Assembly: GCA_903821605.1 (NCBI GenBank)
Contig: CAIJLZ010000006.1
Location: 62,001 to 126,000 of the forward strand
From: an uncultured Sphingomonadales bacterium
GTDB lineage: Bacteria > Pseudomonadota > Alphaproteobacteria > Sphingomonadales > Sphingomonadaceae
Direction: 5' to 3'
DNA length: 64,000 nt
Numbering within the stretch: position 1 is the first letter of the stretch; every line of letters starts with the position of its first letter. Below are positions 17,065 through 20,962 of the stretch, piece after piece. A program made the translations under genes and the position numbers. Below the pieces are notes generated by a model, which saw only the letters and a program-made list of their open reading frames with translations, had not been told where the DNA came from and did not search any database.

Positions 17065-17129
17065 GCCGGGGGCTGGTGGACGGGGGGTGGTTTCGCTCCC
17101 GCTTCTTTGTCCGCTCCCGCACCCCCTCG

Positions 17130-17210
17130 CGTCACCCTGAACTCGTTTCAGGGTCCATTCGGGACTGGTGCCGCCCGGAGGGTGGATGCTGAACCAAGTT
17201 CAGCATGACG
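17130..17210. repeat. Dispersed palindromic intergenic element, copy 2
   Basis: CGTCACCCTGAACTCG-TTTCAGGG on the left and CTGAACCAAGTTCAGCATGACG on the right, between convergent gshA and ybgC. The left half is the ACCC...GGGT hairpin subtype and the right half the ATGC...GCAT subtype (ATGCTGAACCAAGTTCAGCAT), both intact. Confidence 0.88.
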
Positions 17211-17267
17211 AACCTGGGGGAAGAGGGCGTGCGAGAGGACGGAGCGCAAGCGAAAGCGTCCTTGCCC

Positions 17268-17720
17268 TTATCCGGCCAATATCCGGCGGAAGGCGTCCAT
17301 CCATGCGGCGGGCTGGCGTTTCGGGCGGCCGTCGAGCGTGATGAACGCCGCCGTTACATCGGCGCGGATGAGTAGTTCTTCACCGCGCCAGATTTCCTGA
17401 TGGATGGTGCAACTCGCATTTTTGAGTGCCGTCACGGATGACCGGACCAGCAGTTCATCTTCCAGCCGTGCCGGGCGCAGATAGCGGATATTCACCTCGG
17501 CCACGGCATAGACGCCCTCGCCCGATTCGATGGCGCCGCGCTGGTCGATGTCGATCACGCGCAGCATGTCGGATCGGGCGCGTTCCATGAAGCGCAGATA
17601 ATTGGCGTGATAGACGATCCCCGACAGGTCGGTATCTTCGTAATAGACGCGGATCGGGAAATGGTGGACGGCACCGATATATACCCCCGAGGCGGGGACG
17701 GGCAGGGCCGGGTCACTCAT
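17268..17720 (-). CDS. ybgC: Tol-Pal-associated acyl-CoA thioesterase YbgC
   Basis: A 150-residue hotdog-fold thioesterase. The 4-hydroxybenzoyl-CoA thioesterase signature [26 protein letters not shown] carries the catalytic Asp and is followed by [16 protein letters not shown]. The family hydrolyses short acyl-CoA or acyl-ACP and usually precedes tolQRAB-pal; those genes are not downstream here. The ATG at 17720 overlaps the ruvB stop by 8 bases, so it is translated as the last gene of ruvA-ruvB-ybgC. Confidence 0.93.
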
Positions 17721-19340: not shown

Positions 19341-19449
19341 GCCACCGGGTTAGAGGCAGAATGGGGGCCAGCGCAAGAGGAAAAGTTCTGCTATTGTTCC
19401 GCTATGGCGGTGGTAATGGGCGGCTACCCCGATCTCCCCATTCCTTCCC

Positions 19450-20040
19450 AACTCGTCATGCTGAACTTGTTTCAGCATCCACCCGCAAGCGCAGGTGCCC
19501 GGAATGGACCCTGAAACGAGTTCAGGGTGACGAAGGACGCGTCGAAGGAGGGGTGAGTCGATGGCGAGAGTGAGGGACAGGCCGACGCGGCCGTCCCGCG
19601 ATAGGCGACAACGCACGTTCCGCCTGCTCCTTGCAAGGAAGGCTCCCACCTGCAAGGCTCCCGCCTGCAAGACTCCCCCCTGCACGCCTCCCGCCGCTCC
19701 CCAACTCGTCATGCTGAACTTGTTTCAGCATCCACCCGCGAGCGCAGGTGCCCGGAATGGACCCTGAAACGAGTTCAGGGTGACGAAGGACGCGTCGAAG
19801 GAGGGGTGAGTCGATGGCGAGAGTGAGGGACAGGCCGACGCGGCCGTCTCGCGATAGGCGACAACGCACGCTCCGCCTGCTCCTTGCAAGGAAGGCTCCC
19901 ACCTGCAAGGCTCCCGCCTGCAAGACTCCCCCCTGCACGCCTCCCGCCGCTCCCCAACTCGTCATGCTGAACTTGTTTCAGCATCCACCCGCGAGCGCAG
20001 ATGCCCGGAATGCCCCCTGAAACAAGTTCAGGGTGACGAA
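19450..20040. repeat. 253-bp tandem direct repeat (2 full copies plus 85-bp third copy) carrying the palindromic element
   Basis: Copy 1 spans 19450-19702, copy 2 19703-19955, and a truncated copy 3 19956-about 20040. Copies 1 and 2 differ at about 3 of 253 positions by eye, so the duplication is recent. Each copy begins with the dispersed palindrome (19454-19532, 19707-19785, 19960-20038; left half ATGC subtype, right half ACCC subtype). Copies 1 and 2 also contain a run of 15-bp units (G-CTCCC-N-CCTGCAA-G). The whole 764-base gap between ruvA and purU (19341-20104) has no supportable gene; open frames inside it repeat with the 253-bp period. Confidence 0.95.
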
Positions 20041-20104
20041 AAAAAAGGGGCGACGGCGACGAAGGACAGGGAGGGCGGGCCATGCCGCCCTTAACCTCCG
20101 GCGC

Positions 20105-20962
20105 TTAATCCCGGAATACCACCGTGCGGCTGCCGTTCAGGAGCACCCGGTCTTCGAGATGCGACAATATGGCGGAGGACAGCACCCGGCGTTCGATGTC
20201 ACGGCCTTTGCGGACCAGATCCTCCGGGCTGTCGGCATGGCTGATCGCCTCGACGTCCTGATGGATGATCGGGCCTTCATCCAGATCGGCCGTCACATAA
20301 TGGGCGGTCGCGCCGATCATCTTGACCCCGCGCGCATAGGCCTGATGATAGGGCTTGGCCCCTTTAAAACCGGGCAGGAAGCTGTGGTGGATGTTGATGC
20401 AGCGCCCGCGCAACTCGTCTGCCAACTCGTCCGACAGGATTTGCATATAGCGCGCCAGCACCACCAGTTCCGCGCCGCTGTCGATGATGAGGCCGCGCAA
20501 CCGGGCCTCCTGTTCGGCCTTGGTGTCTTTGCTGATCGCCAGATGGTGGAACGGGATGTCATCCGCCAGCGTCAGGTTGAGCGCCTCGCGGGGGTGGTTG
20601 GAGACAATGCCAGCGACCTCCATCGGCAGTTCGCCGATGCGATGGCGATAGAGCAGATCAGCGAGGCAATGGTCGAACTTGGAGACGAGCAGTAGCGTTT
20701 TGCGCTTCTCGTCCTTGCCGCGCAGCTTCCAATCGAGGCCGAATTGCTGCCCCAACACGCCGAGTGCCGTCCGCAACGCGCCGATGCGCTCGCCATCGAG
20801 CAGCGCGAAGACAACGCGCATGAAGAAGCGGCCACTCATCACATCGTTGAACTGCTGGGAATCGAGAATATTGCCCGAATGTGCCGCGAGTGAACCCGCG
20901 ACAGCGGCGACGAGGCCGGGGCGGTCGTCACAGGAGAGGGTAAGGATATAATGTGTCGACAT
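20105..20962 (-). CDS. purU: Formyltetrahydrofolate deformylase PurU
   Basis: A 285-residue protein with an N-terminal ACT domain ([19 protein letters not shown]) and a formyltransferase-like C-terminal domain. The catalytic elements are visible: SNHP (about 125), [30 protein letters not shown] and the [16 protein letters not shown] segment. It releases formate from 10-formyl-THF, balancing one-carbon pools for purine synthesis. Start ATG 20962 gives the normal family N-terminus; the frame is open to 21001. Confidence 0.95.

What the first reader, a model, noticed from the sequence alone, without database searches (positions are those of the whole stretch)
19450..20040. 253-bp tandem duplication between ruvA and purU
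Two nearly identical 253-bp copies (about 3 differences by eye) and a truncated third copy fill the space where ruvC would be expected. Each unit combines the dispersed palindrome with a run of 15-bp repeats. High identity means either very recent duplication or ongoing gene conversion. Copy number is a candidate for strain-to-strain variation and slipped-strand or RecA-mediated change.
Basis: seen in the sequence. Interest (0 to 1): 0.6.

Follow-up and report, generated by a model that had tools for sequence, protein, structure and literature searches.

The report
Tandem array of palindromic REP doublets
A short stretch between two ordinary genes holds three copies of a common hairpin-forming DNA repeat separated by two copies of the same spacer, and the middle copy looks like a recombination product of the outer two, so this is a known type of repeat-driven local duplication rather than a new genetic system.

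Summary
The repeat is real. Window 19444-19696 and 19697-19949 are 253-bp direct copies that differ at 4 sites, followed by a 91-nt partial third copy (19950-20040). The layout is P1-S1-P2-S2-P3. P is a CGTC-tagged REP doublet, dispersed in this genome (39 clusters in the stretches read). S is a 162-bp spacer found nowhere else. P2 carries P3's alleles in its 5' part and P1's in its 3' part, with one breakpoint. Unequal crossing-over (or an equivalent slip) between P1 and P3 of an ancestral P-S-P would leave exactly that. The two congeners held lack the whole ~720-bp insert: purU and ruvA are 45 bp apart there. So the array did not take ruvC's place; ruvC lies near a YebC-like gene on another contig. 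'Very recent' is not shown (S1 and S2 differ at 2 of 162 sites), and copy-number variation is untested because no other strains were available. Tandem REP clusters that include flanking DNA are known in Pseudomonas. One extra observation: tandem repeats in this genome concentrate at these REPs (16 of 39 clusters, against 3 of 40 in a congener). Verdict: a new member of a known kind, of modest interest.

The parts
19385..20104 (.). whole extra stretch in the purU-ruvA spacer relative to both congeners, which have 45 bp in all here; edges approximate by a few bases
   Evidence: alignable to both congeners up to about 19382-19385 and again from the purU 3' end
19444..19534 (+). P1: REP doublet. 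CGTC-tagged arms 19454-19479 (+) and 19507-19532 (-), CGTC tips outward
   Evidence: folds as one long hairpin, -46 kcal/mol, z about -7
19535..19696 (.). S1: 162-nt spacer, unique to this locus, with 15-bp tandem repeats at 19639-19692
19697..19787 (+). P2: hybrid REP doublet (P3 alleles at positions 3 and 44; P1 alleles at 52, 64, 65, 75)
19788..19949 (.). S2: second copy of the spacer, 2 substitutions from S1 (window 19849, 19871)
19950..20040 (+). P3: terminal REP doublet (the 'truncated third copy'), 93% identical to P1
18738..19340 (-). ruvA, downstream of the array in the sense of transcription
20105..20962 (-). purU (formyltetrahydrofolate deformylase-like), upstream of the array in the sense of transcription
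   Evidence: name from reading the sequence and synteny, no family search run

Best explanation
The feature is a tandem REP-doublet cluster. An imperfect palindrome of the CGTC-tagged REP kind (P) came to lie twice in the same orientation in the purU-ruvA spacer, flanking a 162-bp segment (P1-S-P3; inferred). Unequal exchange between sister chromosomes, with P3 of one pairing with P1 of the other (or the equivalent long slip during replication), duplicated S and left a hybrid P2 between the copies (P1-S1-P2-S2-P3). The hybrid is shown in the sequence; the event itself is inferred. The array is most likely non-coding: the 253-nt period is not a multiple of three. Any effect it has would come from separating ruvAB from purU transcription and from the strong hairpins; that is inferred and untested.
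For: P1-S1-P2-S2-P3 layout with constant 253-nt spacing. All six variable P positions fit one crossover, with the switch from P3 to P1 alleles between positions 44 and 52; independent mutation on a star tree gives this pattern with probability about 0.007. P is dispersed: 91 stem matches in the genome at up to 3 mismatches, control 0, mostly as outward-tipped doublets. Other local groups of near-identical P occur in the same genome (3 x 107 bp; P pairs 95-96% alike 256-258 bp apart), while unlinked P pairs average 76% identity. Both congeners have only a 45-bp spacer.
Against: Only six variable sites support the hybrid, so a mutation-only history is not excluded. No genome with the predicted intermediate P-S-P was found. 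How P1 and P3 (93% identical, far above the family average) first came to flank S is not explained. No reads or strains could be inspected.
Confidence: 0.75

Rival explanations
1. Hairpin-provoked replication slippage without homologous recombination made the duplication. Synthesis stalls at the long P hairpin, the nascent end slips back to the previous P and copies P-S again.
For: P folds to a long imperfect hairpin. Tandem repeats cluster at REPs in this genome: 16 of 39 clusters against 3 of 40 in congener G001, Fisher p = 5e-4. Nine of 21 short arrays cross a CGTC tip against 4.9 expected, P = 0.03. Slippage of archaeal polymerases on a hairpin-bearing template in vitro is reported in PMC4134008 (abstract).
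Against: It predicts the same hybrid P2, so the sequence does not separate it from crossing-over. Slips of 253 nt are long.
Confidence: 0.3
2. The array is a functional element, such as an RNA leader or attenuator controlling ruvAB, kept by selection.
For: It lies directly upstream of ruvA on the transcribed strand; the hairpins are strong.
Against: Absent in both congeners. No Rfam match near a family threshold. No promoter-like or terminator-like site by consensus scan. S has no relatives, so there is no conservation to test.
Confidence: 0.08
3. Assembly artefact: the second unit does not exist.
For: Draft of 19 contigs; a similar REP array lies at two contig ends (C8 end, C11 start).
Against: S1 and S2 carry two distinguishing substitutions, P1 and P3 share no exact run over 40 nt, and the longest exact repeat in the array is 129 nt.
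Confidence: 0.07

Closest known systems
Ordered REPIN clusters of Pseudomonas fluorescens SBW25 (PMC3116915)
   Same: Tandem repeats of nearly identical REP doublets including flanking sequence; the typical cluster has two units; 16 such clusters in SBW25.
   Different: Those are REPINs in a genome with RAYT transposases. Here the elements are CGTC-type, no Y1 transposase is detected, and the hybrid middle copy shows the exchange point.
CGTC-tagged REPs (PMC3733652)
   Same: CGTC tip, 8-bp stem beginning with AT, 5-nt loop, CCA tail in many copies, doublets with CGTC outside (HH), alphaproteobacterial host, no dedicated transposase found.
   Different: That paper calls grouped CGTC elements rare, with large clusters in Neisseria and Wolbachia; here several local tandem groups exist in a sphingomonad.
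BIMEs (as summarised in the abstract of PMC2817692)
   Same: Composite arrays of REPs.
   Different: BIMEs have regularly spaced REPs in alternating orientation; here whole doublets repeat head to tail with a 162-bp spacer.

Membership tests
CGTC-tagged REP family | terminal CGTC motif at the outer end | tested here: met
CGTC-tagged REP family | stem of 8-9 bp starting with complementary AT, loop 4-5, CCA-like tail | tested here: met
   CGTC-ATGCTGAA-CTTGT-TTCAGCAT-CCA read directly against the criteria; some copies have CACCC stems or CT tails
CGTC-tagged REP family | predominantly HH doublets | tested here: met
   36 outward-tipped doublets from 98 stems
CGTC-tagged REP family | no dedicated transposase | tested here: met
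   no PF01797 match in the three genomes; controls ring. Other transposase families were not searched.
REPIN tied to a RAYT | RAYT (Y1_Tnp) gene in the genome | tested here: not met
Ordered tandem REPIN cluster (by architecture) | two or more tandem units of near-identical REP doublet plus flank | tested here: met

The most novel reading that the evidence does not exclude
In this lineage CGTC-REP hairpins act as general seeds of tandem duplication: their outer CGTC tips are borders from which flanking DNA is repeatedly duplicated outward, so REPs drive the growth of intergenic repeats without any transposase, a process weak or absent in a congener with as many REPs.
Probability: 0.3. Interest if true: 0.5.

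Novelty: new member of a known kind. Interest (0 to 1): 0.3.

Why it matters
A three-copy array whose middle copy records the exchange point gives a simple, sequence-level example of how REP doublets can make tandem clusters. The genus offers a natural comparison: one genome with many REPs and many REP-linked tandem repeats, one with many REPs and few, one with no matching REPs. That could be used to ask what makes REP hairpins unstable.

Tried and rejected
ruvC replaced by the array: rejected. S as a fragment of a mobile element, phage or plasmid: no match in 396 genomes of the order beyond 19-50-nt chance-level hits, nor in phages or plasmids. S or P as a known RNA family: nothing near threshold. 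A coding array: the 253-nt period shifts frame and the listed ORFs run through the palindrome. RAYT-driven mobility: no Y1_Tnp found. Flank pairing beyond the element: the left flank is pyrimidine-rich and the right flank purine-rich, but pairing is not above partner shuffles.

Full report
Observation. The array is present as described. Two 253-nt direct copies, 19444-19696 and 19697-19949, are 98% identical and are followed by 91 nt of a third copy, 19950-20040. Base by base the two full units differ at four positions. Each unit is a palindromic element P plus a 162-nt spacer S that includes a 15-bp tandem repeat (3.6 copies). The arrangement is therefore P1-S1-P2-S2-P3.

What P is. P belongs to a dispersed family. 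A 26-nt stem motif matches 91 times in the genome at up to three mismatches, while the reversed control pattern matches 0 times. In the stretches read, 98 stems make 36 doublets with CGTC tips facing outward. The stem reads CGTC-ATGCTGAA-CTTGT-TTCAGCAT-CCA, which fits the published description of CGTC-tagged REPs: 8-bp stem starting with AT, 5-nt loop, CCA tail, mostly HH doublets, mainly alphaproteobacteria, no dedicated transposase (PMC3733652). The whole doublet folds into one long hairpin, -46 kcal/mol, z about -7. No Y1_Tnp/RAYT gene was found in this genome or its two congeners, with controls ringing.

What S is. S occurs only here. It was not found elsewhere in the genome, in 39 relatives, in plasmids or phages, or in 396 genomes of the order beyond 19-50-nt hits at E of about 1e-3 to 1e-2 (only two candidates per genome were scored there). 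It has no Rfam match near threshold.

How the array formed. P1, P2 and P3 differ at six positions. At positions 3 and 44, P2 has the P3 base; at 52, 64, 65 and 75 it has the P1 base. This is the product expected when P3 of one P-S-P chromosome exchanges with P1 of another. Under independent mutation on a star tree the pattern has probability about 0.007. That is supportive, not conclusive, because only six sites inform it, and the test was framed after the pattern was seen. A slip during replication between the two P copies gives the same product, so the recombination and slippage routes are not separated here. S1 and S2 differ at two sites, so the duplication is not brand new.

Surroundings. 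The window lies in a sphingomonad. Two other genomes of the same genus were compared. Both congeners are syntenic with the window, and in both purU and ruvA are 45 bp apart without any repeat, against 764 bp in the window. The insert is thus specific to the window's lineage or was lost in the ancestor of the other two. In the window's genome ruvC lies on contig C4, about 0.7 kb downstream of an ORF that reads like YebC (the YebC name is from reading the sequence, not from a family search). Because purU already adjoins ruvA in the congeners, the array did not displace ruvC.

A wider pattern. In the stretches read, 16 of 39 REP clusters have a tandem repeat within 150 bp, with only 5 tandem-repeat loci elsewhere in 134 kb. 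In G001 the figures are 3 of 40, with 6 elsewhere in 106 kb (Fisher p = 5e-4). Some arrays run outward from a REP tip, for example TTCAGGATGACGAAGATC repeated from the arm end in L138, and CGTCATCGCAATGCTT or GTCACATCCACCCCTC repeated up to the arm in L146 and at window 52811. Nine of 21 short arrays cross a tip against 4.9 expected by random placement nearby, P = 0.03. The stretches were chosen because they hold REPs, the flanks include coding DNA, L125 and L126 may be one array counted twice, and the thresholds were set while looking at these data. This is a lead rather than a demonstrated rule.

Known or new. [quoted passage not shown] fluorescens SBW25, with a two-unit cluster drawn as typical (PMC3116915). 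The 2013 survey of tagged REPs describes clusters reiterated in tandem with flanking DNA and calls grouped CGTC elements rare (PMC3733652). The present array is a CGTC-type example of that known kind.

Limits. One genome per species was available, with no reads and no strains. Whether copy number varies, which route of recombination or slippage acts, and whether ruvAB expression is affected remain untested.

Noticed in passing
G000, G001, G002 (whole-genome counts): CGTC-REP stem counts at up to 1 mismatch are 48 in the window's genome, 72 in G001 and 0 in G002, although G001 and G002 are about 88-94% identical over the compared stretch. At two spacers (window 7791 and 17130) G000 and G001 both have a REP where G002 has none.
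   Followed up: partly
window 17074-17290 and the syntenic G002 spacer: Where G000 and G001 carry a CGTC-REP, G002 has a different sequence (AGTCGCCGGCGGCAACATCCGCTGCCTTAGGCTTTCGCGCC...), whose close relative appears at a second G002 spacer; it may be another dispersed family.
   Followed up: no
L126 (end of contig C8) and L125 (start of contig C11): Both contig ends carry a 64-bp tandem repeat followed by near-identical REP doublets (99%), and the head of C11 matches the tail of C8; probably one array at which the assembly broke.
   Followed up: partly
REP flanks in window, L125-L156 and G001 loci: The 10 nt left of REP doublets are about 81-83% pyrimidine and the 10 nt right about 80-81% purine, decaying within roughly 30 nt.
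   Followed up: partly
G000:C4:103187-104032: A second purU-like gene (66% identical to the window's purU) lies on another contig.
   Followed up: no
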